Source: Halorussus vallis (GTDB taxonomy: Archaea > Halobacteriota > Halobacteria > Halobacteriales > Haladaptataceae). Taken from it: a stretch of DNA of 64,000 nt. A model generated the notes under the pieces. That model was not told where the DNA came from, searched no databases, and saw only the letters and a list, made by a program, of their open reading frames with translations. The number at the start of each line of letters is the position of its first letter. The stretch's first letter is position 1. Positions 24,367-55,656 of this stretch are shown here, in pieces. Made by a program: the position numbers and the translations under genes. The stretch spans positions 1 to 64,000 of the forward strand of contig NZ_CP100004.1 in NCBI RefSeq assembly GCF_024138165.1. The letters run 5' to 3'.

Positions 24367-24501
24367 ATCACCGTGTTAGCACTCAGAGTCTAAATAGGTT
24401 AGTACGACTCTTTCGACTACTACAGACGGGGTTCTCGGTCCAAGAATTGAGAACCTTGCGAGTCCGAAGAACTATAGGATTTGCCACACTCTCCCCGAGA
24501 G
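24367..24501. promoter_or_regulatory. Divergent promoter region of the Toprim and MCM genes
   Basis: Leftward: CTATTTAG near 24395 lies about 28 nt before ATG 24366. Rightward: ACTATAGG near 24471 lies about 30 nt before ATG 24502. Between them is an inverted repeat GGTTCTC (24430-24436) / GAGAACC (24449-24455) with a 12-nt spacer, a plausible operator controlling both genes. Confidence 0.6.
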
Positions 24502-26595
24502 ATGGCGCGAGCAGAAAATAATGGACTCATAGACATAATCGAGCAGTTCTATCGGCGCTACTACAAGGAAGAAATCGGCGAACTCGCCCAAAACTACCCG
24601 GAGGACCAACGGTCACTCTACGTCGATTGGTCGGACCTCTACCGGTACGATGCCGACCTCGCTGACGACTTTCTCTCGAAACCCGACCAGCTTCGCGAGT
24701 ACGCCGAAGAGGCTCTCCGACTCTACGACCTGCCCGTGGACGTATCTCTCGGGCAAGCGCACGTCCGCATCCGAAACCTCCCCGAAACGACGGACATCGG
24801 TAAAATTCGCTCTCGGCACATCAACACGCACTTGTCCATCGAGGGGACCGTCGAGCGAGCATCCGAAGTAAAAAGCGACCTCCGAGACGCTGCATTCGAA
24901 TGCCAGCGGTGTGGGACGCTGACGTACATCCCACAAAGTACACTGGGAAAAACGCAAGAGCCTCACGAGTGCCAGGGTTGTGATCGACAGGGGCCGTTCC
25001 AAGTCAACCAGGACCAGTCTGAATACGTAGACGCTCAGACGATACACGTCAAACAGCGGCTCTCCGGCGTCAAAACGGACGACCAAGCGAGCATCGTCGT
25101 CGAACTGGAAGACGACCTCGCCGGAACGGTTTCTCCCGGTGATAACGTCACTGTGACCGGCGTCGTCCATCTCGCGAGCGAGAATCGAACGGAAGCGTCG
25201 GTCGCGGATAAATTCATCGGCGCGCACTCCGTGACCGTCGAGGATGCCACCGAGGTTCACGGTCTCGACATCACCGACGAGGACAAACGCCAAATCGTCG
25301 AACTCTCGACCGAGGACGCCATCTACGAGCAGATGGTCGAATCGTTCGCACCCTCCGTCTACGGCAACGAGAAGGCGAAACTCGCGATTCTGCTCCAACT
25401 GTTCTCCGGCGTCACGAAACACCTCCCAGACGGAACGCGGATTCGTGGAGATCTACACGTCGCGCTCATCGGCGACCCCGGCACGGCGAAAAGCCGTCTC
25501 ATCGGCTACGCCGGGAACCTCGCACCGCGGACGGTCAAGATTTCGGGGAAGAACACGTCCTCGGTCGGGCTGACCGCAACGACGAAGAAAACGAGCAGCG
25601 GGTCAGAGACCTGGACGTTCGAAGCGGGTGCGCTCCCGATGGCGGACAAGGGCCTCGCGCGAATCGACAACATCACCGACCTCCGAAGCGAGCATCTACG
25701 GACGCTGCATGACGTGCTCGAAGAGCAGGTTATCGAACTCACGAAGGCGACCGTCTCGGCGACCATTCAAGCGCGAGCGTCCGTTCTCGCCGCCGGAAAC
25801 CCGAAGTACGGCCGGTTCGACCAGTACGAACCCATCGGCGAACAGGTCGATCTCGACCCCGGTCTGATTTCGCAGTTCGACCTTATCTTCATCACCACCG
25901 ACCAACCGGACGAAGTCGAAGACGAGAAGATTGCCGACCATGTTCTTCAATCGAACTACGTCGGCGAACTGAACACCCAACGCACTGAATCGAATGCGCC
26001 GAGCGTGTCGGCGAACGATTTCCGGAACCAGTCGGAGCAAGTCGCACCAACAATTGACCCCGGCCTTCTGCGGAAGTATATCGCGTACGCTCGCCAGAAC
26101 TGCTTCCCGACGATGACCGACGAGGCGATGGAGTCCATCAAGGACTTCTACGTCGACCTGCGCTCGAAGGGCGCAGACGAGGACGCGCCTGTGCCCGTGA
26201 CAGCGCGGAAGCTGGAAGGCTTGGTTCGACTCGCCGAATCAAGCGCGAAGATGCGGCTCTCCGACAGCGTGGAAGTCGAGGACGCCGAGCGCGTAATCGA
26301 ATTGCTTCGGTCGTGCTTGTTGGACCTCGGTGTTGACCCAGAGACGGGTGAATTTAACACTGACGTCGCAGAGCAAGTCAGTGCAAAGAGACAACGAGAA
26401 CGTATTAAAAACGTCAAACAACTTATTGCTGAGATTGAAATGGAAAACGACGATGGAGCACCGATAGACCAGGTTATAGAAGAAGCCAGTGCGTATCTTG
26501 GGATGGAAGAGAAGAAGTTTGCTCACGAACTAGACAGACTCAAGCAGAAGGGAGAGGTGTACGAACCAGCCGAGGGATACCTCCGAACGACGTAA
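24502..26595 (+). CDS. mcm: MCM helicase paralogue with altered catalytic residues
   Basis: ATG 24502 is chosen over an in-frame TTG at 24481 because the TATA box fits it; 697 residues. Order: A-domain, zinc site CQRC...CQGC (about 134-160), OB-fold, AAA+ domain and wHTH tail (about 640-697). Walker A is intact (GDPGTAKS, about 324-331) and the sensor-1 Asn is present (AAGNPK). Walker B reads ARIDNI, where canonical MCMs have IDEFDK, so the catalytic Glu is Asn. The arginine-finger motif SRFD reads SQFD. These changes predict a protein that binds ATP but hydrolyses it poorly alone. It may be a regulator, or may share a hexamer with the host MCM (inference). Confidence 0.93.
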   Translation: MARAENNGLIDIIEQFYRRYYKEEIGELAQNYPEDQRSLYVDWSDLYRYDADLADDFLSKPDQLREYAEEALRLYDLPVDVSLGQAHVRIRNLPETTDIGKIRSRHINTHLSIEGTVERASEVKSDLRDAAFECQRCGTLTYIPQSTLGKTQEPHECQGCDRQGPFQVNQDQSEYVDAQTIHVKQRLSGVKTDDQASIVVELEDDLAGTVSPGDNVTVTGVVHLASENRTEASVADKFIGAHSVTVEDATEVHGLDITDEDKRQIVELSTEDAIYEQMVESFAPSVYGNEKAKLAILLQLFSGVTKHLPDGTRIRGDLHVALIGDPGTAKSRLIGYAGNLAPRTVKISGKNTSSVGLTATTKKTSSGSETWTFEAGALPMADKGLARIDNITDLRSEHLRTLHDVLEEQVIELTKATVSATIQARASVLAAGNPKYGRFDQYEPIGEQVDLDPGLISQFDLIFITTDQPDEVEDEKIADHVLQSNYVGELNTQRTESNAPSVSANDFRNQSEQVAPTIDPGLLRKYIAYARQNCFPTMTDEAMESIKDFYVDLRSKGADEDAPVPVTARKLEGLVRLAESSAKMRLSDSVEVEDAERVIELLRSCLLDLGVDPETGEFNTDVAEQVSAKRQRERIKNVKQLIAEIEMENDDGAPIDQVIEEASAYLGMEEKKFAHELDRLKQKGEVYEPAEGYLRTT

Positions 26596-30570: not shown

Positions 30571-31719
30571 CTATCGGTCTGTCTGCTCGAACGCGTCGCT
30601 CGCTTCGTCAGCTACCTCCTCGGCGGAGATATGCGAGTAGGCGTCCATCGTTGTCTTTGGATCTGCATGGAGCAGGTGCCGTTGGGCTTGCTCCCACCCT
30701 TTCTCGCGCACGAGCGTATCGCCAGCGCCACGTCGACCACCGTGGAGTTCGAGGTACTCGCCGTTCTCAGTGTCGAGTCCTGGTACGTCAGCAGCCGCCG
30801 AGAGCCGTTTCATGACGGTCCGCGCCCCGGCGGTCGTCAGTGCAGGCAGTGGTATCCCGTAGTCGTAGCAGACCTCCAGGGCCGTCTGCTCGGCGCGAAT
30901 CGACTCGATTTCGTCCTCACTATACCCCTGGTCTTGTAGACCAGCGGTCGCGGTTGAGGAAATCGTCGGCGCGTGCAGCGTCGGGAACACCGGCCACGCA
31001 TCGCTCGGCGGCTGATAGATTTCTCTCCATCGTCGAAGCGCCGACAAACACTGTCGCGGGAGGCCGGTGTCTTGGTACTGCTGTGACCCTTTTTCGAGGA
31101 TGTTCATCGTCCCCGTTTCGAGGTCGACGTCGGACCACCGAACGCCGTCGCGCCGGTCGTCGTTCCGGTCTTTCAGGACTTCGCCACCACGAACTCCGGA
31201 GTAAGCGATTGTTGCGACGAACGCGCGGTCACGCGCCTCTGCGAGCGCGTCGAAACCTCGCTCGTCTATCGCGTCGTGCGCTCGCCGGTTCACGTACGCC
31301 ATAATCGCAGTCCGTTGTCGCGGTTTCCAGAGCTGTTGGCTGTGCTCGTCTCGCTGGTCGTCGTTCGGAAGCGCGTTCATCGCTCGACTCTTCGCCGCGG
31401 GGTTGTCCAAGAGGTATTCTCGCTTCTGGCACCACGTCAGGTAGGCTCGCACGTAGTCGTAGTACTTCCGCGCAGAGGACGCCGCGAGTCCGTCCGTATC
31501 GCTCGTACGGCGCTTCAACTGGCGGGCGTAGGCTTCGAGGTCGTCGACGCCGAGGCCCGCGAACGTGTACGTGCGGCGTTCCTCTTCGGTCCACGACAGC
31601 CACTCGCGGAGGACGCGTTCGGCGTTCCGCCGATAGTTCCCCGTGCCGTTGTCCTTCGACTTGTCGATGAGGTAGTCGTCGAGCGGGCTATCGAGCGACT
31701 GGCTCTGCTTACTCGGCAT
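30571..31719 (-). CDS. Tyrosine recombinase (XerC/D-like integrase)
   Basis: 382 residues. The N-terminal SAM-like core-binding domain (about 10-115) precedes the catalytic domain with Arg177 (SGVRGGE), a candidate Lys near 210, HGGR (His326/Arg329), His348/351 and the nucleophile Tyr361 (DAYSHI). All catalytic positions are present, so it should be active. It overlaps the upstream ParB-like gene by 11 nt. The pairing suggests resolution of plasmid dimers or integration. No flanking att site could be identified. Confidence 0.92.
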   Translation of the reverse strand: MPSKQSQSLDSPLDDYLIDKSKDNGTGNYRRNAERVLREWLSWTEEERRTYTFAGLGVDDLEAYARQLKRRTSDTDGLAASSARKYYDYVRAYLTWCQKREYLLDNPAAKSRAMNALPNDDQRDEHSQQLWKPRQRTAIMAYVNRRAHDAIDERGFDALAEARDRAFVATIAYSGVRGGEVLKDRNDDRRDGVRWSDVDLETGTMNILEKGSQQYQDTGLPRQCLSALRRWREIYQPPSDAWPVFPTLHAPTISSTATAGLQDQGYSEDEIESIRAEQTALEVCYDYGIPLPALTTAGARTVMKRLSAAADVPGLDTENGEYLELHGGRRGAGDTLVREKGWEQAQRHLLHADPKTTMDAYSHISAEEVADEASDAFEQTDR

Positions 31720-32401
31720 CAGCTACCTCTATCGACCGTGGTTCGTCGATTCGCTCCGGTTCGAGAAGATCTTCGAACTGCGGCAACTGGCCGAGTCGTT
31801 CGTCCGGCCAATCTTCTCGGAGTCGTTCGAACGAGTCGCGGACCTGCTCTCGGGTGTACCATCCACGGTGGGTACTGTTACTGTTGTCAGCACCCATGTC
31901 GGGCGTGGGGATGTGGTCTTCAACCCAGTGAACCGTGTACTCCCAGTCGGTGAAAGCGGTCGTCGTGCGAACAGGTACCGTGTCGAGTCCGGCACGGCGG
32001 GCGGCTTCAAGGCGCTTGTGTCCTTCGAGCGTTAGGAGGCTCTGGTCGGTCTCCCAGACGAGTGGGTACGACCCGAGACTGTCGTGCTGACGGACCTGCC
32101 GCACGTAGTGATAGAAGTCTCGGTTGTCGAACTCGCGGACGCTGTACGGGCATGGTTCGACTGCTTCGGGGTCTACGCGCCGAATCTCGTCCTTTGGGTT
32201 GGTCCGGTAGACGATATCTGGCTGCCGGAGTTGCGTTTGGCCGAGGCGGTCACCATCCGGGCCGGTCGCGTCGAGCAGGATAAGAGACTTGTCGTTGAAG
32301 TTCCAGACCTTCACCCACCCGGTGTAGCGGTCGCCGTCCTTGATGGCGACGACCTCCTCACACCGAAAGTCGTCTAGCGCGTCGTGGTAGGGATTAGACA
32401 T
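31709..32401 (-). CDS. ParB-like nuclease-fold protein
   Basis: 230 residues from ATG 32401 (a longer frame to 32458 overlaps the small upstream gene). The region LTLEGHKRLEAARRAGL (about 135-152) followed by VPVR matches the ParB N-domain motif 'GhrRleAak.lG...vPv'. Classical ParB HTH sequences are not obvious. Such proteins act in partition or regulation. It is co-translated with the integrase; no ParA is visible in the window. Confidence 0.75.
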   Translation of the reverse strand: MSNPYHDALDDFRCEEVVAIKDGDRYTGWVKVWNFNDKSLILLDATGPDGDRLGQTQLRQPDIVYRTNPKDEIRRVDPEAVEPCPYSVREFDNRDFYHYVRQVRQHDSLGSYPLVWETDQSLLTLEGHKRLEAARRAGLDTVPVRTTTAFTDWEYTVHWVEDHIPTPDMGADNSNSTHRGWYTREQVRDSFERLREDWPDERLGQLPQFEDLLEPERIDEPRSIEVADAE

Positions 32402-32501
32402 TGTGACCACATTCTGAGTCGTAGTATTGAGTTGCAACGCCTGCTCGACCGCTGTCAAGATTTGGATTCTCCGTGGAACCTGTTGTCTTTGGCGTAGGCA
32501 T
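32394..32501 (-). CDS. 35-aa microprotein upstream of ParB
   Basis: ATG 32501 opens 35 codons whose TAA overlaps the ParB ATG by 8 nt, a coupling geometry seen at other junctions here. The product ends in YYDSECGHNV. No promoter is clear; ACTTATG near 32608 is the nearest. Confidence 0.4.
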   Translation of the reverse strand: MPTPKTTGSTENPNLDSGRAGVATQYYDSECGHNV

Positions 32502-32831: not shown

Positions 32832-33156
32832 TGGGAACGGAGCGGCGAGGGGTCGTTTTCTCTTGCCGTACCGCATCATTAGAAGTTACTTCTCTATCTC
32901 GCCGTTTCTGGTTATGGATACTTCATTTAGTATTCACCGATATGTTAATTATCTATTCATAGTTTCTCCAGTAGAAATGAGGGTGGCCATTTGAGGTAAT
33001 ATTTATTAATTAATTTGTTCTGGAATAGACTCTCCTCGGGCGTTTTTAGTGAATTTCCCCATTGAGATATTATTGAGGTGTGGGACAAGAACATTTATAA
33101 CCCCATAGGACCATAATTTCGACTGGGTCTAGCCGACCCGCGCCGCTCCGTTCCCA
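32832..33156. repeat. 16-bp inverted repeat pair enclosing AT-rich DNA
   Basis: TGGGAACGGAGCGGCG (32832-32847) is repeated exactly in inverse at 33141-33156. Total span 325 nt. No target duplication or coding frame was found. It may be a non-autonomous mobile element or a long-range RNA/DNA pairing involving the leader. Confidence 0.55.
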
Positions 33157-33351
33157 TCGGTGTCGTGGTCCGGTTCCCCGCTTAATCGGTAAGCGGATTT
33201 CGGAACACGCACGCGGCAAATCTAAAGGTCACGTCAGCCCTCTCGGTTAGCTGTAGGTAATCGTGTTCTTCGCGATACCACCCAGCCGTCACAGCTTTCA
33301 CGAGGAGCCGACGGCCTCCGCTCGCAGGTCAACGCGAGCAGGAGACTAACC
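33094..33351 (+). promoter_or_regulatory. TATA box and about 230-nt structured leader of the ubiquitin-like operon
   Basis: ATTTATAA (33094-33101) predicts a transcript start near 33122. The leader contains GGGTC-TAGCC-GACCC (33125-33139) at its 5' end and CCGCTTA-ATCGG-TAAGCGG (33178-33196), the latter enclosed by GTTCC/GGAAC. Long leaders are unusual beside the leaderless promoters elsewhere in this window, so riboswitch-like or protein-mediated control is possible. Confidence 0.5.
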
Positions 33352-33663
33352 ATGACCGAAGAAAACCGCAGTACGGAAGAATCTCACGACAACCACCACG
33401 GCGACGACAACGGACGAGGCAACGGTAACAACCCTCACGTCGTCTTTGTGGACAACATCAAGGACAAAATCTCCGAGGACACGGTGAAGGCTAGCCGCCT
33501 CATCGAAATCTCGTTCGACAAGCCCGGGAACTACGACCTCGTAGCAACCAAGGGTGAAAACGGCCCCGAACAGGCCGTCTTCGACCACAACGACTCAGTC
33601 GACCTCACCGAGGAACATCGCAAGTTCTTCGACACGAAAGGCGACGGCGAGAACTACGTCTAA
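33352..33663 (+). CDS. Ubiquitin-like protein (single multiubiquitin-type domain)
   Basis: 103 residues: a disordered Asp/Asn/His-rich N-terminus (about 1-28), then a compact beta-grasp-like domain. The pattern 'VFVDNIKDKIS...VKASRLIEIS', 'NYDLVA' and 'VDLTEEHRKFF' matches the prokaryotic multiubiquitin family, in which a final 'VdL.....Ff' strand is typical. There is no C-terminal Gly-Gly; the protein ends GDGENYV, so conjugation would need C-terminal processing or another chemistry. TAATG junction with the E2-like gene. It is likely the modifier of the three-gene system. Confidence 0.75.
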   Translation: MTEENRSTEESHDNHHGDDNGRGNGNNPHVVFVDNIKDKISEDTVKASRLIEISFDKPGNYDLVATKGENGPEQAVFDHNDSVDLTEEHRKFFDTKGDGENYV

Positions 33664-34217
33664 TGTCGGCCGGCGACGAACGAACTGAGGACGATTCAAA
33701 CCTCGGTGCCGAAACGCCATCCGAACCACGGCGGGAGTATCCGCAGCACGACGAACTCCTCAGCAGTCTCCCGCAAGCGTTCCAAGACGGCTTCGAAGAG
33801 TTAGAAGCCATGGACGCTGTTGACCCGCGAATTGTGACGATAACGGACGACGGCGACCCTGCTGGGGGTAACTACGTCTTCATCAGCCTGGGCGTCGTCA
33901 ACGTATCGAAGTTTGCGGACTACGACAACGACCATGCAGAAGTGTTCGTTCGTCTGAAGAACTGCTTCCCTGCGGGCCAGAAATATGGGTTCGCAACGGA
34001 TGAAGTTCTTCGGGTGGACGGGAATCTCCCAGAAAGCAGTCAGACTGACCGCGACCACGCCGAGCCGCTCTGTGACGCGCTCGGCGTCGAAGAGGTCCTG
34101 TACTGGAGCCGAAGATGGGACTACCTGGACATCGACGACAGGGACCCCTCGGCCATGCGGAACGCAGTTCCGTGGATGCGAGCGGTACTCAGTCGGCCGT
34201 TCGAGGAGAGTGAGTGA
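33663..34217 (+). CDS. E2-like protein (resembles prokaryotic E2 family E)
   Basis: 184 residues. After an acidic N-terminus the core 'VRLKNCFPAGQKYGF' (about 96-110) recalls the 'lP..YP...P' segment of E2 folds, and the C-terminal 'YWSRRWDY' plus a terminal helix resembles the WSRH-type ending of prokaryotic E2 family E proteins. Cys101 is the only Cys in the core and is not at the usual E2 active-site position, so catalysis is uncertain. It lies between the ubiquitin-like gene and the JAB-E1 gene, spacing -1 and +1 nt. Confidence 0.65.
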   Translation: MSAGDERTEDDSNLGAETPSEPRREYPQHDELLSSLPQAFQDGFEELEAMDAVDPRIVTITDDGDPAGGNYVFISLGVVNVSKFADYDNDHAEVFVRLKNCFPAGQKYGFATDEVLRVDGNLPESSQTDRDHAEPLCDALGVEEVLYWSRRWDYLDIDDRDPSAMRNAVPWMRAVLSRPFEESE

Positions 34218-34218
34218 G

Positions 34219-35826
34219 ATGACGACTAGCTCACTTCTCGACCGACACCGGTCGCTTTCAGAAGCCAACGGCTTCCATCTCGGAATGTCCGAGGGCGCAC
34301 ACGAAGATATCATGGAGGTCTTATTCGAGGACCCCGAGACGAAGGCAGAATGGGAACGCGGCGTCATCTGTGTTGTTACCCGAAGTAGCGGCACAGAGCG
34401 TGTCTCGTTCCTCGTCCACGACGTGCTCAAACCCGACGCTGGTGACGTTAACTACGACGGCCGTGTTCAATTCACGGCTGACTACCGCTACGAAGCCGTC
34501 CAAAAGGCGCGAAATGTGGGTGAGAGCGCAGGACTTCTCTACGTCCACACGCACCCAAACCTCGCGAACGACGAGACGGCGCAACCAAACCCATCACGTG
34601 GCGATCTCGACGCGGCGGAGTCCGACCTGTTCGAAGACGCCTGCAAGCTCGGTGAGGAAGCACCACTCGGAATCGCTATCGTGAAAGACGACTCTCGGGA
34701 GTGGCGTGTTCTCGGGTACGAGTTCGACACGCCAGAGACCGCCGGCCAGCGAGAAAATCCCGCGTACAGCCCGGATTCAGTGAACGTGTACGAGGGTGAC
34801 TGTGTTCGCGTTGTCGGTGAATCTCTCACTGAGTATCCAACAACCGTCCAGACTCCCGGTGTCGAAGGCGCAGTCGCGCCCGTTGACGAAGACGCTCAAG
34901 AGAGCACAGTCAACATCTGGGGTGAAGAAGGACAAGAGCAGTTGAACGCGCTACGAGTCGGACTCGTCGGCCTCGGAGGTGGCGGTTCAATTCTTGCCGA
35001 ACACCTCGCACGGATGGGCGTAGGGGAAGTGGTCCAGGTGGACTACGACCGCCTCGAACCCGCAAACCTGAACCGCGCCCAAGGTGCGACGCAAGCTGAC
35101 GTAGACGCACGTCGACCGAAGGCGAAAATCGGGGAACGACTTGCGAGACTCGGTGCCACCGCACCGGAGTTCTCTGTGGATGCGATTGAAGCGAGTGTGA
35201 CAGAAAGTCGTCCGGAATACGGTGCGCTTCATCGCCTTCTCGACTGTGACGTTATTCTCCATGCAGCGGAAGGAGAGTGGCCAACTCGTGTCCTCGACGA
35301 GATAGCGCACGCCCATCTTATCCCCGTCATCAGTGGCGGGTCGAACCTTCTCAACCAAGCGGGAGTTCTAACCGAGAAGGCGTACGCACAGAACATCGTC
35401 TCAGGTCCAGGGCAACCCTGTCAGAACTGCGCTCGGCATTGGACGAAAACGGGTGCAAATGACGAGATGAACGACCCTGACGCGACCGGTCCGGGTGACT
35501 ACGGACTCGACATGGAGTCGGACGAGGAGGTTGGTGAGAACGTCGATACCGAGAACGAAGACGAGGACGAGCGAGAACCGAGTACGAATGCGCTGAATCT
35601 AATCGTCGCAGGTCAGATGCTACTACGATTGCAGGACCTCGTAGTCGGTGTCTCCGGGACGCAGGTCGGGATCCGCAGGTTCAAACCGGGTACTTGGTCG
35701 ATGGAGAACGGTATTCCCAGTTGTAAGAACAGTTGTCCAATGAAGGCGATGGAGGCCGATGGTGACACTGCCCACCTTCCACTGTCTTCAGATCCGAAAT
35801 TCGCGAAGTTGAGACGGAGTTTGTAA
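34219..35826 (+). CDS. JAB metalloprotease-E1 (ThiF) fusion protein
   Basis: 535 residues from ATG 34219 (a longer frame is a shadow of the E2-like gene). Residues about 20-170 form a JAB/JAMM deubiquitinase-type domain: His110, His112, Ser126 and Asp129 in VHTHPN...PSRGDL. Residues about 240-510 form an E1/ThiF adenylation domain: GLGGGGS (251-257), Asp275 in VDYD, NLNR with Arg286, then CQNC (401-404) and CKNSC (502-506) as zinc ligands. An acidic insertion lies at about 410-455. No obvious catalytic Cys is seen between the zinc pairs. It would activate and trim the upstream ubiquitin-like protein. Distinct from the SAMP/UbaA system. Confidence 0.88.
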   Translation: MTTSSLLDRHRSLSEANGFHLGMSEGAHEDIMEVLFEDPETKAEWERGVICVVTRSSGTERVSFLVHDVLKPDAGDVNYDGRVQFTADYRYEAVQKARNVGESAGLLYVHTHPNLANDETAQPNPSRGDLDAAESDLFEDACKLGEEAPLGIAIVKDDSREWRVLGYEFDTPETAGQRENPAYSPDSVNVYEGDCVRVVGESLTEYPTTVQTPGVEGAVAPVDEDAQESTVNIWGEEGQEQLNALRVGLVGLGGGGSILAEHLARMGVGEVVQVDYDRLEPANLNRAQGATQADVDARRPKAKIGERLARLGATAPEFSVDAIEASVTESRPEYGALHRLLDCDVILHAAEGEWPTRVLDEIAHAHLIPVISGGSNLLNQAGVLTEKAYAQNIVSGPGQPCQNCARHWTKTGANDEMNDPDATGPGDYGLDMESDEEVGENVDTENEDEDEREPSTNALNLIVAGQMLLRLQDLVVGVSGTQVGIRRFKPGTWSMENGIPSCKNSCPMKAMEADGDTAHLPLSSDPKFAKLRRSL

Positions 35827-36128
35827 CTTAACTCCGACCGTTCCATTCCACTCGTTTCGCGGATAGGCGAACTGTTTTGCCGATACATATACCCATATTG
35901 CCAAATAACCGACCTGAAAGATACATTCAAATATATCTGTCAAAGTTGTTCATTTGGTGAGCGACAATACGACCGTAACCCGCCATTATAAGTGCCACTG
36001 TCAGGAGACGCCTCAGTGGGTTGCACGCCAACATCAACAGTAGCGGTCATCCCCATGCTCACACCGGACGCAAAATAAAACCTTTGAAAAGGCAAACATA
36101 TTAATATCTATTTTATTTTAGAATACTT
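35827..36128. other. Intergenic region with the promoter of the zincin gene
   Basis: About 300 nt. A T-rich stretch follows the JAB-E1 stop. The last 60 nt are AT-rich (CATATTAATATC and TATTTTATTTTAG) and supply a promoter for ATG 36129. No gene seen. Confidence 0.5.
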
Positions 36129-37582: not shown

Positions 37583-37975
37583 TCAGATTTCCTCAAACGG
37601 GTACTGGTCGTAGATATGGTCGAGACAATCGCCAACGAACGAGTTGAGACTCTGTGCTACCTCCGGTTCTAGGGAGACGACGACGCCCGTTCGATTCTCA
37701 ATCGGGAAATGCATGAAAATGGTCTCGTCAAATACGCGAAGCGTTGCGTGCATATGACCGAACGGGAATGATTGCTCTTCGTTCGCAGTTCCTTCCTGTT
37801 TGATACGGGTCAGCATTTGTTTGACCTCATCCTGATGGCGGTGTTCCCGAATATCGTCACGAAGATACACGACGTTAAATTCGTCTTCTCGATAGTGTGC
37901 GACTCCACGAAGCTGATCGTCGACTCGCTCGTTCAGGTACTTCGATAGTGACTGAGAAATCTGTTGCCGAGTCAT
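37583..37975 (-). CDS. Conserved paralogue A of a tandem pair (unknown function)
   Basis: 130 residues. It shares a clear pattern with the next gene: LRGV..Y..DE....Y.RDDIR..H, SFPFG, MHFP and LEPEVA..LN.F.G.CL. Soluble, alpha/beta, no catalytic motif recognised. The pair probably arose by tandem duplication, and each copy has its own promoter (TCTATAG near 38013 for this one). The pattern feels like a small haloarchaeal sensor or output domain. Confidence 0.8.
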   Translation of the reverse strand: MTRQQISQSLSKYLNERVDDQLRGVAHYREDEFNVVYLRDDIREHRHQDEVKQMLTRIKQEGTANEEQSFPFGHMHATLRVFDETIFMHFPIENRTGVVVSLEPEVAQSLNSFVGDCLDHIYDQYPFEEI

Positions 37976-38049: not shown

Positions 38050-38415
38050 TTATTCCATCCGTTGGAGGCAGTTCCCCAGAAACGTGTTTAGCTGGCGAGC
38101 GACTTCCGGTTCGAGGGTGACGACCGTCCCTCGGCCCTGAGTATCGGGGAAGTGCATCACCATTGCGTTTTCGAACGAACGGACGATGCCATTGAGTTCG
38201 CCGAAGGGGAATGAACGGTGTTCGCTTGGGCGGGACTCTCGGCGTAATCGTTTGATGATTTTGTTGACATCGTTTTTGAGATGCTGTGTGCGAATATCGT
38301 CGCGGATGTAGTGGATTTCGTACTCGTCACTATCGTACGTAATAACACCGCGGAGCAGTTCACCTGTTTCTGATTTCAAATATGAAATTAGTTGATGGTA
38401 GGATTCTTCGGTCAT
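38050..38415 (-). CDS. Conserved paralogue B of a tandem pair (unknown function)
   Basis: 121 residues with the same motif skeleton as paralogue A. CTTTAGCA lies about 27 nt upstream of ATG 38415, so it is expressed as a nearly leaderless transcript. Divergence between copies is high outside the motifs, which suggests an old duplication. Confidence 0.8.
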   Translation of the reverse strand: MTEESYHQLISYLKSETGELLRGVITYDSDEYEIHYIRDDIRTQHLKNDVNKIIKRLRRESRPSEHRSFPFGELNGIVRSFENAMVMHFPDTQGRGTVVTLEPEVARQLNTFLGNCLQRME

Positions 38416-43576: not shown

Positions 43577-44050
43577 TTACCAGAGTAGGGAGAACACCGT
43601 TGTTTGTGCATTTGCTGCTTGTCCCGTCGGATCTCCAGCACTATAAACAGAAATTGCGTAAATTACGAGCAAGACCAAGATTGTCCCGTACAGTATAATT
43701 ACGGAGCGCGAAACCATTATCCGCCAGATTGGTTTGACTTTATTTTTGAACGGGGAAGAGTCCATGCTGAAACTGTCTCGCTGAGCGTTGTCCCGGTTTT
43801 CGCGGACGTGGTTGTACAGCTTTCGATACTGGCGTTCAAGCTTGAGGTAGTAGGCGTCTAAATACCAGAATGCGAACAAGGGGATGAACGCGACGATGAT
43901 TTGCGAATCACTCGTTCGAAATAAGAGCGTCACAACGACGAGCGTGATAGTCCATCCCTTAACCTTGAAGGAGTTATCGGCTTGCCGGTCGATAACGTTC
44001 TGGATGAACTCCAATTCTGTCACGAACGTCTCGTCATCGTCGTCGCTCAT
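43577..44050 (-). CDS. Membrane partner of the TIR-like protein (SLATT-like topology)
   Basis: 157 residues. Two close helices (about 32-45 and 49-66) are followed by a charged helix FWYLDAYYLKLERQYRKLY, then a third helix (about 112-135). It abuts the TIR-like gene with no gap. Membrane proteins of this layout pair with MTH538/TIR-like proteins in prokaryotic conflict systems and may act as the pore-forming effector (family knowledge plus inference). Confidence 0.75.
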   Translation of the reverse strand: MSDDDDETFVTELEFIQNVIDRQADNSFKVKGWTITLVVVTLLFRTSDSQIIVAFIPLFAFWYLDAYYLKLERQYRKLYNHVRENRDNAQRDSFSMDSSPFKNKVKPIWRIMVSRSVIILYGTILVLLVIYAISVYSAGDPTGQAANAQTTVFSLLW

Positions 44051-44536
44051 CTATCTGTTCGCGATTCTCGCGGCTTCTTCTATCCAGTCGGCCAAATTCT
44101 CTTGCCCGTCGTCATGTACCCAGTCGTAGGTGTTGTATTTCTCTGAGAGCTTCTCTCCCGGTTTGCCGAGTGTTGGTTTGCTAAGTGGGTTCTTTCCGAA
44201 TGAGTCCGTTTGGCGGTTCTGGTCCTTGATATTGTGGACTCGGATACCAACAAGGCCCATCTCATCCCTGACGCTCTTGTTGATCTCGTAGTCAACCCAC
44301 TCCCGGCCGTAGGTTTGGCTTCCGATTAAAACGACCGTCACGGAACAGCCTTTCATTTGCTTTCGAATCCACCGTTTTATCCGGTCGTCGCTTTGGCGTT
44401 TGAGGGTTTCCCAGTCCACCCCGTCGAAGAACCCGGTCTCGTCGTAATTGGGCTTGACAACCCCGCTATTGCGGACTTGTCCAGCGCGCCAGTTATCACG
44501 GTCGTAATGAAAGCTGAAGAACACTCTTCTGGCCAT
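44051..44536 (-). CDS. MTH538 TIR-like protein (DUF1863, ThsB-related)
   Basis: 161 residues from ATG 44536; GAATATAG about 30 nt upstream makes this start near-leaderless, and earlier Met codons are upstream of the transcript start. RRVFFSFHYDRDNWRAGQV is the standard beginning of the MTH538 family, and VVLIGSQTYGREWVDYEI is its conserved core strand and helix. Relatives include ThsB of Thoeris, which makes an NAD-derived signal. The gene reads into the membrane-protein gene, forming a two-gene module. Confidence 0.88.
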   Translation of the reverse strand: MARRVFFSFHYDRDNWRAGQVRNSGVVKPNYDETGFFDGVDWETLKRQSDDRIKRWIRKQMKGCSVTVVLIGSQTYGREWVDYEINKSVRDEMGLVGIRVHNIKDQNRQTDSFGKNPLSKPTLGKPGEKLSEKYNTYDWVHDDGQENLADWIEEAARIANR

Positions 44537-44640
44537 GAACTTGGGTGTCACCCCTCGACTATATTCTTTTCTGTCCATCTCCGTGAGGAGGTGGCCTTGG
44601 ACGGCCACCAAGACAAAAATTGGCTCCCCAAGCCGACCGT

Positions 44641-51541: not shown

Positions 51542-53470
51542 TTAATCGGCTATCCCACGGTCGTCCAACGCGCTCTCGATTTCTTCCCGAATCACTTCTC
51601 GAAGTTCACCCTCGGACCATCCGTCGTCGTTACGTTGAGCAGCAAGTTCCCGGTCCACCGCCGAAACCCGCTCTACCAGCTCCGAAACGCGCTCTTCGAC
51701 CGCCTTTTCATCTTCATCCCCCGCATCCAATTCGTCCGACGGGGGTTCGTTGGCAGTCTCGGCTTCGGTTCCGTCGTCGGAGTCGCCAGTGAGCGCATCC
51801 GTCAGGTGGCTCGAATCCGTTTCGCTCTCGGTTCGAATCTCAATGCTCGGATGAGCGACGTCGTGGACATTCCGGATAGCCACGAGGCCCTCGTCCGGCG
51901 GATGGACGGGAATCACCGATTGAACCGCGGCGCGGGTGACGAGATCCGCCGAGAGATTTCCCTCCAAATGATTGACCATCGACCGCTGGTTCTCGGGGTC
52001 GCCGTGAACAAGTGCAACGTGGTTCGCGTCGACGTCGCGAGCGAACTGGAGTAGCGTATTGCGAGCGGCGTGCCCGCTCATCCCGGAAACGGTGTGAATC
52101 CAGTCGGTCGGCACGTCGAACGTGTATTCCGGCGGTCCGTCGCCGTCCGTCTCGCGGGCCTCGCGCTCGCTCGTAATCGGCCACGCGTTCACCGTCACCG
52201 TCGCGGTATCGCCATCGGCCTGCTGGAGGTCGTGGCCGGGCGTCCCTGGTGCTTGATAGCCCGTGAAGAGGATACGGGCTTCGTCGTAGTTCTCGACGAG
52301 TTCGAGTAGGTACGCGGGCGAGAGACCGCCCGTGAGCATACCCGACGGACTGACGACAATCGGCGCGGTATCTTGGTCGAGAATCCGCCGCCGGTCATCT
52401 GCATTCGACGGCCGCTCGGCGATTTCCGGGACGAACGGTTCGAAGTCCGCAGCGTTCTCCATGTAGTTCATCACGCTATCGTTGACGTACTCGGGCGATG
52501 CGTACGCATGATAGCGGTCGGTCGCCTCGGTCGCCATGCCGTCGTAGACGATATGGAGTTTCTCACGAGTCTCCTCGGGGAGATTCCGCCAACGTTCCCG
52601 GAAGATTTGGAGAATTTCCTGAGCGCGACCGACCGCGAACGTCGGAATCAAGACTGGAATGCCCCGCTCGATGGCGTCGATAGCTGTTTCGAAGAGTTCT
52701 GTCCGGGCTTTCTGGAATGAATTGTGGGTGTCGCGGTCGCCGTAGGTGGATTCGAGTATAAGCGTGTCTGCGCCCGGCGGGGTTTGGATGTCATGAAGGT
52801 GTGCAGACCGGCCACCGAGGTCACCCGAGAAACAGACGCGACGGCCACCGGATTCGAGGGTGAGCCACGCACTCCCGAGCAGATGGCCTGCGTCGCCGAA
52901 CTCGTACTGGAGGTCTTCGTCATGAATACCTACATGGTCGGTGACGCGGCCGCTTCCGTAACCGCTCAGCGGGTCAAACCGGGCGAGCACGTCCTCAACG
53001 TCAGTTCGCGTGAAATGGCGTTCGCGACCGGGTTTCTTCGCTTCGCTTTCGTGGATTTTGAGCGAGTCGTGGAGAAGAACGTGAGTAAGTGCGGCAGTAC
53101 CCTGCGTACAGATGATTTTCGCGTTCGGCGCAAGCAGGTTCCGGTGTTCGAGGACGGGCAGGCCGCCAGAGTGGTCGATGTGCGCGTGGGTGAGGAACAC
53201 GGCGTCGATAGATTCCGGTTCAAGGCCGCGGAAGTCGGCGAACTGACCGCCACTCCCCTGGTTCAACCCGCAGTCGACGAGGTAAGTTCCCTGGCGCGTC
53301 TCCACGTGATAGCAACTGCGGCCAACCTCACGTGCGCCACCGCGGGGGAGCACGACGAGTGGCGTTTCACCGTCTACGTGCTCCGCAGCATTGACTGGAG
53401 ATGGACGGTCGGCATCCGAATCGTCGCTCGAAGGCGATGCATCGTCGCTCGAATTCGTGTCAGTAGTCAT
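51542..53470 (-). CDS. Beta-CASP metallo-beta-lactamase RNase (CPSF-like/aRNase J type)
   Basis: 642 residues. The metallo-beta-lactamase motif HAHIDH is at 95-100, the later metal ligands are in GDAGHLLGS (about 195) and SGDLGG (about 215), and the beta-CASP region has motifs PTFAVGRAQE and SPSGMLTGG, followed by GHA and VHGD as motifs B and C. The family cleaves or trims RNA and includes archaeal 3'-end processing factors. The C-terminal 110 residues are an acidic coiled extension not present in typical members. No KH domain precedes it. Possibly an element-encoded RNA processing enzyme. Confidence 0.9.
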   Translation of the reverse strand: MTTDTNSSDDASPSSDDSDADRPSPVNAAEHVDGETPLVVLPRGGAREVGRSCYHVETRQGTYLVDCGLNQGSGGQFADFRGLEPESIDAVFLTHAHIDHSGGLPVLEHRNLLAPNAKIICTQGTAALTHVLLHDSLKIHESEAKKPGRERHFTRTDVEDVLARFDPLSGYGSGRVTDHVGIHDEDLQYEFGDAGHLLGSAWLTLESGGRRVCFSGDLGGRSAHLHDIQTPPGADTLILESTYGDRDTHNSFQKARTELFETAIDAIERGIPVLIPTFAVGRAQEILQIFRERWRNLPEETREKLHIVYDGMATEATDRYHAYASPEYVNDSVMNYMENAADFEPFVPEIAERPSNADDRRRILDQDTAPIVVSPSGMLTGGLSPAYLLELVENYDEARILFTGYQAPGTPGHDLQQADGDTATVTVNAWPITSEREARETDGDGPPEYTFDVPTDWIHTVSGMSGHAARNTLLQFARDVDANHVALVHGDPENQRSMVNHLEGNLSADLVTRAAVQSVIPVHPPDEGLVAIRNVHDVAHPSIEIRTESETDSSHLTDALTGDSDDGTEAETANEPPSDELDAGDEDEKAVEERVSELVERVSAVDRELAAQRNDDGWSEGELREVIREEIESALDDRGIAD

Positions 53471-53483
53471 TGATGGATGGAAG

Positions 53484-54377
53484 TTAGTTGCTCAGTATGT
53501 CTTCCGCGTAGAACCGTTCCTGTGACTGGGTATGGCCGGTGAACGTCACGGCTTCGAGCAGGTCGGTCTCCGCGAGCGCCGGGAGGAATGCATCAAGGTC
53601 GTTCACGACCGGCGTAAGTGGACGAACGCTATCGGTCGGACTTGAGACCCGGCGGGCCTGCCAGATAGCAGGCGTCGCGTCGAGACTGTTGTACGCGTCG
53701 GCTTCCGAATCCGTATAGTACTGGCACCGACTCGCCTGCTGTGTCGTCGTTCGGGCAGCCCGCGAGGGTTTGGCGGTCACTTCGTCGACGCGAGTCAGTT
53801 GAAGCGGTGACCGCGAGCGGTCGGGAAGCGCGTCGCCGAGATCGTCACGGACATTGTGAGCGGACAGCGACGAGTCTTTCTGGAAGTACGCGAGCGTCAT
53901 GTCGCCGTTCTCCGAGTAGATGTCTGGGTCAGCGACGTGCTCGCCGTTTTTCGAAGAGAGATACCGCGCCGGGATTTCAACGAAACAGATTCCGACGAGT
54001 TTCAGTCGGTTGGGGTCAGTTCGGGTTTCTTCGTCGAGGTAGTCCACGACGGCCTGGAACTCCTCGATGCACTCACGGGTATTCCAGATGGTCGCGCCAT
54101 CCGGTGCGCGTTCAGCGGGGTTGTTGAAGTAGATAGTCGTCTCGGGGACGTAGGGCGCGTTGATGGGTTCCCGGAGTTCGACCGGCGATGGGGAACGGTC
54201 GAGGCCGTCGTGTCGTCGGTCACCGCTCTTGGTACGTTCGAGTTTCACCTTCGCCGTCACGGGGAAGACGGTCGGAGGAAGTGATTGGAGAACAGCAATC
54301 GGATCTTGTTCCTGCAAGAGAACTGCGCGTTCACGTTCAAAATCAGTTCCGGGTTCGGGGGAGTGTTCCGTACTCAT
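53484..54377 (-). CDS. Hypothetical protein next to the beta-CASP RNase
   Basis: 297 residues from ATG 54377 (a TTG farther upstream is less likely). Acidic N-terminus, alpha/beta middle with a VGICFVEIP strand and Ser/Arg-rich loop. No known domain. It ends 13 nt before the RNase gene, so the two are co-transcribed and may work together. Confidence 0.75.
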   Translation of the reverse strand: MSTEHSPEPGTDFERERAVLLQEQDPIAVLQSLPPTVFPVTAKVKLERTKSGDRRHDGLDRSPSPVELREPINAPYVPETTIYFNNPAERAPDGATIWNTRECIEEFQAVVDYLDEETRTDPNRLKLVGICFVEIPARYLSSKNGEHVADPDIYSENGDMTLAYFQKDSSLSAHNVRDDLGDALPDRSRSPLQLTRVDEVTAKPSRAARTTTQQASRCQYYTDSEADAYNSLDATPAIWQARRVSSPTDSVRPLTPVVNDLDAFLPALAETDLLEAVTFTGHTQSQERFYAEDILSN

Positions 54378-54560
54378 GCTATCAGGCCGCGTCTGCGGCG
54401 ACGACTCGGCCTCCCGCACCCGTTTCCACGAGTGCAAGACGCCGAGTCGAACTGGTCGAGATGTGTTAACTATTCCCCTAAGTAGTTTCTGGATTTAATC
54501 GATTGTACCGACGAGAGACGTGCCAAATGATTATCCTATAGGAGGAGAAACGGATTTCTA

Positions 54561-55079
54561 ATGGTCAGGTTCACGGGGGCGTTCGCCTATGAGTGCGACA
54601 AATGCGCGTTTGGTGGTGAGCGCGATACGCTAAGAGCCGCATTCACGACGGTACAAGAGCACAGACAATCAGAACTTCACGAAGTTCTCTGGACGCAATT
54701 CAACTTCGATCCGCCGCTTGAATCGGCCCTTGGTCCAGAGTGGAAGGTTGAATGCAAGAACTGCTATCAGTCGTGGCGACACGATAGCAAGCAGGCCGCC
54801 GAGGAGTTCGCCGACCAGCATGCGAAGGTCGTCGGCCACGAAATCGATTCCATTACCGAGTACGAGGATGCAGCTCTAGAAACAGAAAGCGTGAAAGGTG
54901 CGTTAGAGCGGTTGACGCCCGAATTTGACCGCGGTGTTCCAAAACCGGTGTTGCTACATCTTCTTGAGCAAGGCGGGTTTACCTCGGAGGAGATTGACCG
55001 AGAAATCCAGCGGCTCTCAAAGCGCGGAGATGTGTATCAGCCGAGTGACCGTCTGTACAGGTACATCTCAGATAGCTAG
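54561..55079 (+). CDS. Zn-knuckle protein with an MCM-like C-terminal wHTH
   Basis: 172 residues with CDKC (12-15) and CKNC (66-69) zinc knuckles. The tail (about 110-170) reads VKGALERLTPEF...VPKPVLLHLLEQGGFTSEEIDREIQRLSKRGDVYQPSDRLYRY, the pattern of the MCM wHTH (compare LDRLKQKGEVYEPAEGYLRT in the MCM here). A strong Shine-Dalgarno GGAGGAG precedes ATG 54561, unlike most genes in the window. Possibly an MCM or origin cofactor (inference). Confidence 0.78.
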   Translation: MVRFTGAFAYECDKCAFGGERDTLRAAFTTVQEHRQSELHEVLWTQFNFDPPLESALGPEWKVECKNCYQSWRHDSKQAAEEFADQHAKVVGHEIDSITEYEDAALETESVKGALERLTPEFDRGVPKPVLLHLLEQGGFTSEEIDREIQRLSKRGDVYQPSDRLYRYISDS

Positions 55080-55606
55080 TAGATGCGGAACGGCCCGTTG
55101 TAGGTACCACCGATGTCACCGCGTTCTCGGAACTTATCGAGCATCGCGAGCGCCTTATCACCGTTCATCCCGAACTGTTCTGCGTATTCGCGAACATCGT
55201 CTCGGTCGGGGTCGGACTGCTCACTTACTGCGTCGAAAACGATGTCCTTCTGGCTTTTTGAACGGTGCTTGTTCTCTAGGGCACGTTCTTCGGCCTCCTT
55301 GGCTGCATCCGAATCTGCTCCCATCTGGTCGAGGTAATCGTCGTTCGCAACGACCTCGGCGATCTCCTCGTCAAGCACGCCATTTTCTCGTGCGCGCTCG
55401 TATGGTTCGTCGAGTGAATTGACGCTTGCTTGTACTTTCGTTCGAACTTGGCGGGCGGCGTCTGCATCCTCGGACTGGTAGTAGTGCTTGAGTTTCTTGA
55501 ACTTGTGACGTTTCCGACATCGTCCGCAGGTCGTCGTTTCTGGGATACTCTGAACGATGAATACGGATTTGCAGTTCGGGCAGACCGTGACGGTTCGGAG
55601 TGACAT
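55076..55606 (-). CDS. Zn-ribbon protein (DUF5817-like) with a wHTH tail
   Basis: 176 residues from ATG 55606. CPNC (9-12) and CGRC (27-30) followed by RHKFKKLKHYYQSEDADAAR resemble the haloarchaeal DUF5817 family. The tail DIVFDAVSEQSDPDRDDVREYAEQFGMNGDKALAMLDKFRERGDI ends in a wing (GPFRIY), again like the MCM C-terminal wHTH. Convergent with the preceding gene with a 4-nt overlap of stops. Confidence 0.75.
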   Translation of the reverse strand: MSLRTVTVCPNCKSVFIVQSIPETTTCGRCRKRHKFKKLKHYYQSEDADAARQVRTKVQASVNSLDEPYERARENGVLDEEIAEVVANDDYLDQMGADSDAAKEAEERALENKHRSKSQKDIVFDAVSEQSDPDRDDVREYAEQFGMNGDKALAMLDKFRERGDIGGTYNGPFRIY

Positions 55607-55656
55607 GAGAACAATCGTGTTGGGCAAGTAATGTAAAGGTTCAGTGTCGGCGTTCG

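What the first reader, a model, noticed from the sequence alone, without database searches (positions are those of the whole stretch)
33352..35826. Three-gene ubiquitin-like conjugation system: multiubiquitin-type modifier, E2-like protein and JAB-E1 fusion
The operon reads Ubl, E2-like, JAB-E1 with junctions of -1 and +1 nt. The E1 keeps GxGxxG, Asp275 and Arg286, and the JAB keeps HxH...SxxD. Related operons are known in bacteria (prokaryotic E1/E2/JAB systems including CBASS Cap2/Cap3 and Bil). Two oddities make this one interesting: the Ubl does not end in Gly-Gly (GDGENYV), and I see no catalytic Cys between the E1 zinc pairs. Haloarchaea also have SAMP/UbaA, so this is a second, plasmid-borne pathway with an unexplained chemistry. 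A long structured leader and AT-rich surroundings suggest acquired defence cargo.
Basis: partly seen in the sequence, partly recalled or inferred. Interest (0 to 1): 0.78.

Follow-up and report, generated by a model that had tools for sequence, protein, structure and literature searches.

The report
Archaeal Bub-type ubiquitin-like conjugation operon
A haloarchaeal plasmid carries a complete three-gene ubiquitin-like protein-tagging operon whose enzymes appear to work through a serine rather than a cysteine, which makes it an unannotated archaeal branch of the recently described bacterial "Bub" pathways and not an unknown chemistry.

Summary
The three genes are real and form a tight operon: Ubl (103 aa), E2-like (184 aa) and JAB-E1 (535 aa). 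Against solved structures, the best match to a profile of the E1 and its haloarchaeal relatives is Citrobacter BubCD, a JAB-E1 fusion (2.6e-27). Profile alignment to a close homologue of BubCD spans JAB and E1 (2e-22). The modelled Ubl is closest to BubA and bacterial multi-ubiquitin structures, and the modelled E2-like protein to UEV/UBC folds. So this is a Bub operon (class 6e of Iyer 2006). I found 15 other haloarchaeal genomes with the operon, many of them on plasmids, and one Thermoplasmata MAG. In an E1 tree they form one fully supported archaeal branch.

The Ubl tail ENYV follows a conserved Gly99, matching BubA, whose crystallised piece ends at a single Gly229. The E1 has no crossover Cys, and the only fully invariant E2 residue besides Met1 is Ser149, where Citrobacter BubB also has Ser and a related haloarchaeal class has Cys. 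Most likely route: JAB trims the Ubl, E1 adenylates it, E2 Ser149 carries it as an oxyester, a target is tagged. Chemistry and antiviral role are inferred, not shown. New: the archaeal lineage.

The parts
33352..33663 (+). Ubl gene (BubA-like, single beta-grasp domain after a disordered N-terminus), 103 aa, P0001
   Evidence: AF2 model; six best structural matches are bacterial multi-ubiquitin/BubA structures, Z 5.9-6.3, next row 4.7
33646..33648 (+). Codon of Gly99, the inferred C-terminal residue of the mature Ubl
   Evidence: Invariant between window, Halobacterium and Thermoplasmata Ubls; BubA crystallised as 155-229, and residue 229 of a close homologue is the Gly of VNNG|EES
33649..33660 (+). 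Codons of the tail ENYV, inferred to be removed by the JAB domain
   Evidence: Every archaeal Ubl has Gly followed by 2-5 further residues
33663..34217 (+). E2-like gene (BubB-like, UBC/UEV fold), 184 aa, P0002
   Evidence: family profile reaches PF14462-positive proteins at 1e-5; AF2 model and structural matches UEV/UBC/RWD
34107..34109 (+). Codon of Ser149 in W-S-R-R-W, the proposed E2 nucleophile
   Evidence: The only fully invariant residue besides Met1 among 12 haloarchaeal E2s; Ser in Citrobacter BubB, Cys in a sister class
34219..35826 (+). JAB-E1 fusion gene (BubCD-like), 535 aa, P0003
   Evidence: ThiF 4.5e-25; Citrobacter BubCD; 380 columns aligned, 2.2e-22
34354..34605 (+). JAMM metalloprotease motif of the JAB domain: Glu46 ... 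His110-Thr-His112 ... Ser126-x-x-Asp129
   Evidence: Asp129 aligns with Asp104, mutated to Ala in solved BubCD D104A
34909..35430 (+). ThiF/E1 adenylation domain with GxGGGG, Asp275, Arg286, Lys301, Asp344 and Zn pair C401/C404
35572..35598 (+). E1 crossover-loop motif R452-x-P-S455-x4-N460 (no Cys)
   Evidence: Invariant in archaeal Bub E1s; PS-V-I-x-x-N in Citrobacter BubCD; Ala or Gln in some relatives
33094..33100 (+). Probable archaeal TATA element (TTTATAA) upstream of the operon
   Evidence: read directly from the sequence; inference only

Best explanation
This is an archaeal Bub-type ubiquitin-like conjugation operon (Ubl = BubA-like, E2 = BubB-like, JAB-E1 = BubCD-like). Proposed steps: (1) The JAB domain trims the Ubl after Gly99, removing ENYV. 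(2) The ThiF/E1 domain adenylates the exposed Gly. (3) The acyl group passes to Ser149 of the E2-like protein as an oxyester, because the E1 has no crossover cysteine; E1 Ser455 may take part but is not conserved in all relatives. (4) The E2 passes the Ubl to a lysine (or other nucleophile) of a target, and the JAB domain can also take it off again. (5) The operon is a plasmid-borne module, probably used in conflict with viruses or plasmids. Supported here by sequence and modelled structure: gene order, family relationship, conservation of the catalytic residues and of the Gly-plus-tail, presence in several haloarchaeal families. Inferred: every chemical step and the biological role.
For: E1: best PDB match for the archaeal E1 profile is Citrobacter BubCD, 2.6e-27, covering JAB and E1 parts; hhalign against a close homologue of BubCD aligns 380 columns at 2.2e-22. 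Ubl: the model's best six structural matches are all bacterial multi-ubiquitin or BubA structures. E2: structural matches are dominated by UEV/UBC/RWD domains; the family profile reaches PF14462-positive proteins; Citrobacter BubB is itself of the PF14462 type and carries Ser in WSRHRSW. Catalytic residues: Ser149 is the only invariant E2 residue besides Met1; a haloarchaeal sister class has Cys there; archaeal Bub E1s never have Cys between the Zn pairs. Tail: all 12 distinct haloarchaeal Ubls and the Thermoplasmata one have Gly then 2-5 residues; BubA ends at Gly229 in the crystallised piece. Lineage: one archaeal branch in the E1 tree, support 100/100; near-identical operons (91-98% E1) in genomes of three haloarchaeal families.
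Against: The window Ubl and E2 themselves hit no Pfam, NCBIfam or PADLOC family in a meaningful way; their assignment rests on operon position, relatives and models of moderate confidence (mean pLDDT 66 and 61), with Z under 8. Profile comparison of haloarchaeal E2s with the fused BubA-BubB protein is weak (probability 8%, though in register), and of haloarchaeal with bacterial Ubls also weak. E1 Ser455 is Ala in a close homologue of BubCD and in some Ser-E2 operons, so an E1 oxyester is not supported. One archaeal subclade has His112 replaced by Gln in the JAMM motif. The DUF6527 gene of the enterobacterial operon is missing here. The papers on Bub chemistry (Ye et al. 2026; Gong et al. 2025) could not be read; that they report Ubl-serine oxyesters is my recollection.
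Confidence: 0.75

Rival explanations
1. A non-conjugating system: the E2-like protein is catalytically dead (as Iyer et al. labelled class 6e), and the Ubl is activated only for sulfur or AMP transfer, or works as a non-covalent or filament-forming scaffold.
For: Iyer 2006 calls the E2 of this class inactive. PDB titles show that multi-ubiquitin proteins can form filaments. The E1 lacks a crossover Cys.
Against: A single invariant Ser in the E2, at a position held by Cys in a sister class, is hard to explain in a dead enzyme. No sulfurtransferase gene was recognised next to the operon. The JAMM motif is kept in most members.
Confidence: 0.13
2. Conjugation runs through two oxyesters: first on E1 Ser455, then on E2 Ser149.
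For: Ser455 lies in the invariant R-x-P-S....N motif of the crossover loop, the region where MoeB-type E1s carry their Cys. The haloarchaeal operons with a Cys E2 all have Ala at this E1 position.
Against: Ser455 is Ala or Gln in several Ser-E2 operons (L032, L036, L075, L076, L092) and Ala in a Citrobacter braakii homologue of BubCD. The Cys-E2/Ala-E1 pairing is one clade, so one event.
Confidence: 0.2
3. An offshoot of the SAMP/UbaA pathway that uses SAMPs or feeds the same targets.
For: Same genome holds UbaA; the window E1 matches the UbaA model weakly (40.6 bits).
Against: Far below the UbaA cut-off (450 bits). UbaA has the Cys in VPDCATTG while the window E1 has none. UbaA forms a separate, fully supported branch. 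The operon has its own Ubl and E2.
Confidence: 0.03

Closest known systems
Bub (bacterial ubiquitination-like) operons; Citrobacter BubA, BubB, BubCD (PDB 9EA4, 9EA5, 9EA8, 9EAE, 9EAV; Ye et al. 2026, PMC12885553, not readable here)
   Same: Gene order Ubl, E2-like, JAB-E1; JAB fused to E1; Ser at the E2 catalytic position; no E1 crossover Cys; Ubl ending at Gly before a removable stretch; plasmid location
   Different: Archaeal branch; one Ubl domain instead of several; Ubl and E2 are separate genes (fused in the Citrobacter braakii plasmid example); no DUF6527 gene and no regulator recognised next to it; Ubl and E2 too diverged for Pfam; E1 has two Zn Cys pairs that the Citrobacter E1 lacks at the aligned places
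Class 6e polyUbl operons of Iyer, Burroughs and Aravind 2006 (PMC1779556)
   Same: Ubl, E2/RWD-like UBC fold protein, JAB-E1 fusion; a solo-Ubl case is noted there
   Different: Listed only from bacteria; their fourth protein Y (metal-binding) is absent here; they call the E2 inactive
Bil (BilABCD)
   Same: Ubl, E1, E2 and JAB in one operon
   Different: BilB uses Cys138 in a CEHH motif (PMC11354881); JAB and E1 are separate proteins in Bil
CBASS Cap2/Cap3
   Same: E1/E2/JAB chemistry in a prokaryote
   Different: E1 is fused to E2 and JAB is separate; the substrate is a CD-NTase; no such gene recognised next to the window operon
SAMP/UbaA of haloarchaea
   Same: Archaeal Ubl activated by a ThiF/MoeB-type E1
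   Different: No E2; E1 with catalytic Cys; chromosomal; present in the same genome

Membership tests
Bub / class 6e | JAB-E1 fusion homologous to BubCD | tested here: met
   2.6e-27; 380 columns, 2.2e-22
Bub / class 6e | Ubl of the multi-ubiquitin/BubA beta-grasp type encoded first in the operon | tested here: met
   Fold level only: six best structural matches of a moderate-confidence model, Z 5.9-6.3; gene order
Bub / class 6e | Ubl reaches the Pfam Multi_ubiq model (PF14452) | tested here: inconclusive
   No hit for the window Ubl; relatives L049 and L029 hit weakly below the cut-off, E 0.06 and 0.02
Bub / class 6e | E2-like protein of UBC/RWD fold related to Prok-E2_E (PF14462) | tested here: met
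   Profile reaches PF14462-positive proteins at 1e-5; model matches UEV/UBC; the window protein alone has no Pfam hit
Bub / class 6e | Ser in place of Cys at the E2 active position | tested here: met
   Ser149 invariant; same in BubB
Bub / class 6e | Ubl ends at Gly followed by a stretch removed by JAB | tested here: met
   Sequence pattern only; cleavage itself not testable here
Bub / class 6e | Fourth gene DUF6527 / protein Y (accessory; not treated as defining) | tested here: not met
   No + strand ORF of 50 aa or more at 35827-36128; next gene is DUF3267; present in Citrobacter braakii
Bub / class 6e | Covalent Ubl conjugates through a Ser oxyester | not testable with these tools
   needs biochemistry
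Bil | E2 with catalytic Cys (CEHH motif) | tested here: not met
   No conserved Cys in the E2 alignment
CBASS Cap2/Cap3 | E1-E2 fusion with separate JAB | tested here: not met
   JAB is fused to E1 and E2 is a separate gene
SAMP/UbaA | E1 reaches NF047750 and carries a crossover Cys | tested here: not met
   40.6 bits against a cut-off of 450; no Cys

The most novel reading that the evidence does not exclude
Haloarchaea and at least one Thermoplasmata lineage carry their own, so far unannotated, branch of Bub pathways that conjugates a Ubl through a single E2 serine oxyester, charged directly from the E1 adenylate with no covalent E1 intermediate, running alongside SAMPylation and used against haloviruses or plasmids.
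Probability: 0.35. Interest if true: 0.7.

Novelty: new member of a known kind. Interest (0 to 1): 0.5.

Why it matters
[quoted passage not shown] An archaeal Bub branch would give Haloferax genetics, with its SAMP toolbox, access to serine-based ubiquitin-like conjugation. It would also allow a direct test of whether an E2 serine can be charged without a covalent E1 step, since Ser-E2 and Cys-E2 operons of the same superfamily both occur in haloarchaea.

Tried and rejected
Single-protein scan of genome contigs gave nothing; the alignment gave 48 loci.

IMG/VR held no relative of the E1. The operon region has no near DNA match among plasmids.

Rfam: only a chance hit far below threshold. The structured leader was dropped because it is not conserved in the closest relative.

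E1 Ser455 as a universal E1 nucleophile was considered and set aside: Ala or Gln in several Ser-E2 operons, Ala in a Citrobacter braakii homologue.

Invariant C343 as an E1 nucleophile was set aside: it is not conserved in relatives (A, V, I, S). E2 C101 and C138 are not conserved.

Haloarchaeal against bacterial Ubl profiles: no significant link, hence the fold comparison.

No gene besides the three is shared across all the neighbourhoods, so no effector or sensor gene could be named. tRNA search of the window: none.

The key Bub papers (PMC12885553, PMC12145246) and two Burroughs papers are not held.

Full report
WHAT IS THERE. The window lies on contig C5 (130,675 bp) of a 5.05-Mb haloarchaeal genome. 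A genome of the same genus, G006, contains a 158,515-bp contig with the same operon at the same coordinates as a plasmid of Halorussus salilacus, so the genus is probably Halorussus. The three reported ORFs are confirmed: Ubl 33352-33663, E2-like 33663-34217 and JAB-E1 34219-35826, with a 1-nt overlap and a 1-nt gap. Pfam sees only ThiF above its cut-off in the third (4.5e-25); the first two hit nothing in Pfam, NCBIfam or PADLOC that means anything.

RELATIVES. A search of 392 genomes of the order found the full-length JAB-E1 in 15 other genomes, one with a second copy, at 37-69% identity. Together with the window that is about 4% of genomes. Reading the DNA upstream, every locus examined has an E2-like gene and a Ubl gene in the same order. 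A Thermoplasmata MAG, YP3.bin39, has the same three genes. Eleven haloarchaeal plasmids in PLSDB carry the JAB-E1. Five copies of one subtype are 91-98% identical in E1, in genomes of three families, which indicates recent transfer. Only the three genes recur across neighbourhoods; nothing else is shared by all. In the two public haloarchaeal records I opened, the Ubl and E2 are 'hypothetical protein'.

IDENTITY. A profile of twelve haloarchaeal E1s (A4) finds Citrobacter BubCD as the best match among all solved structures, 2.6e-27, ahead of TcdA and UBA5, with pieces over both the JAB part and the E1 part. Profile alignment with a close BubCD homologue from a Citrobacter braakii plasmid covers 380 columns, 2.2e-22. 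The Ubl model (mean pLDDT 66) has as its best six structural matches bacterial multi-ubiquitin proteins and BubA, Z 5.9-6.3, then a step down to 4.7. These Z values are modest and the model is middling, so the weight comes from the fact that all six are of one kind. The E2-like model (mean pLDDT 61, pTM 0.61) matches almost only UEV, UBC and RWD-type folds, best Tsg101 UEV, Z 7.1, rmsd 4.3 over 126 residues. The haloarchaeal E2 profile reaches PF14462-positive haloarchaeal proteins at 1e-5. Citrobacter BubB is itself a PF14462 protein. Iyer et al. 2006 had described this gene set as class 6e: polyUbl, inactive E2/RWD-like protein, JAB-E1 fusion and a metal-binding protein Y (PMC1779556).

THE TWO ODDITIES. 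First, the Ubl end. All twelve distinct haloarchaeal Ubls end with a Gly followed by 2-5 residues (KGDG|ENYV, KGDG|RNYV, PPGG|YI, GSG|RS, GGG|NS, DGG|KIAYE and so on), and the Thermoplasmata Ubl ends GGGG|FS. The position of Gly99 is invariant in a three-way alignment across two classes of archaea. The solved BubA piece is residues 155-229, and in the C. braakii homologue residue 229 is the Gly of VNNG|EES, inside a BubA-BubB fusion. So a single Gly with a stretch to be cut off is the normal state, and the fused JAB domain is the obvious protease; its Asp129 aligns with Asp104, which the depositors mutated. Second, the missing cysteine. None of the archaeal Bub E1s has a Cys between the Zn pairs; they have R-x-(P/I/A)-S....N instead, and Citrobacter BubCD has PSVI..N there. 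In the E2, Ser149 (W-S-R-R-W) is the only residue besides Met1 that is identical in all twelve haloarchaeal members. BubB has WSRHRSW. A related haloarchaeal class has Cys in the same motif (KWCIEELDW, KYCIHTITDW). That exchange of Ser and Cys at one place marks it as the likely nucleophile.

HOW IT PROBABLY WORKS. JAB trims the Ubl to Gly99, E1 adenylates it, Ser149 of E2 takes it as an oxyester, and a target lysine or other nucleophile receives it; JAB can remove it. Whether E1 Ser455 also carries the Ubl is open. For: it is invariant in archaeal Bub, and the Cys-E2 class always has Ala there. Against: several Ser-E2 operons have Gln or Ala there, and so does the C. braakii homologue of BubCD. 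The Ser/Ala pairing with Ser/Cys is a single clade and so a single event. I therefore favour direct transfer from the adenylate to E2.

ROLE. A pair PDC-M50A and PDC-M50B/ThsB-TIR lies at 43577-44611 and a HamB-like helicase at 55657-57906. This fits a defence neighbourhood, but PMC13373217 states that Bub operons have not been shown to protect against phage and may serve stress responses. No CapK, CapS, CapW or CapH/CapP-like gene was recognised beside the window operon; the genes just upstream are an integrase-like and a ParB_N-like gene.

PHYLOGENY AND NOVELTY. In a maximum-likelihood tree of 49 E1s the haloarchaeal and Thermoplasmata operons form one branch, support 100/100, separated by a long stem from the nearest bacterial (Myxococcota) rows; UbaA is a distant outgroup. 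The genome also holds a true UbaA on the chromosome. I found no paper in the library that describes Bub in archaea, but the two central papers were not available, so priority is not established. I rate it a new member of a known kind with a new lineage. The value is an archaeal test bed for serine-based Ubl transfer, rather than a new principle.

Noticed in passing
L037, L039, L054-L059 (haloarchaeal genomes): A separate haloarchaeal clade of E1/E2 operons whose Prok-E2_E-like protein has Cys in the place of Ser149 and whose E1 has Ala at the Ser455 column.
   Followed up: partly
L029 5055-7083, L038, L031-L036: Other haloarchaeal operons with a clear Pfam Prok-E2_E (some with a long N-terminal extension fused to the E2) and a JAB-E1 or E1; more than one Bub-like class exists in haloarchaea.
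   Followed up: partly
L050, L052, L053, L066 JAB domain: The JAMM motif reads HTQ instead of HTH in this subclade, although its Ubls still end DGG plus a tail; JAB activity there is unexplained.
   Followed up: no
L043, L047, L049-L051, L053 Ubl genes: Some archaeal Ubls carry an N-terminal extension of roughly 100-150 residues, acidic and probably helical, before the beta-grasp domain.
   Followed up: no
window 43577-44611 (-): Adjacent PDC-M50A and PDC-M50B/ThsB-like TIR genes, a candidate two-gene defence system.
   Followed up: partly
window 51542-57906 (-): A beta-CASP metallo-beta-lactamase, a gene without a Pfam hit and a HamB-like DEAD helicase in a row.
   Followed up: no
window 24481-26595 (+): A full-length MCM helicase gene on the extrachromosomal contig.
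   Followed up: no
window 37583-37975 and 38050-38415 (-): Two tandem DUF7522-like genes downstream of the operon, probably a duplication.
   Followed up: no
window 33110-33355 (+): The 5' leader folds better than shuffled sequence (z -3.15) but is not conserved in the closest relative.
   Followed up: partly
window 30571-32458 (-): An integrase-like gene and a ParB_N-like gene just upstream of the operon, on the opposite strand.
   Followed up: no
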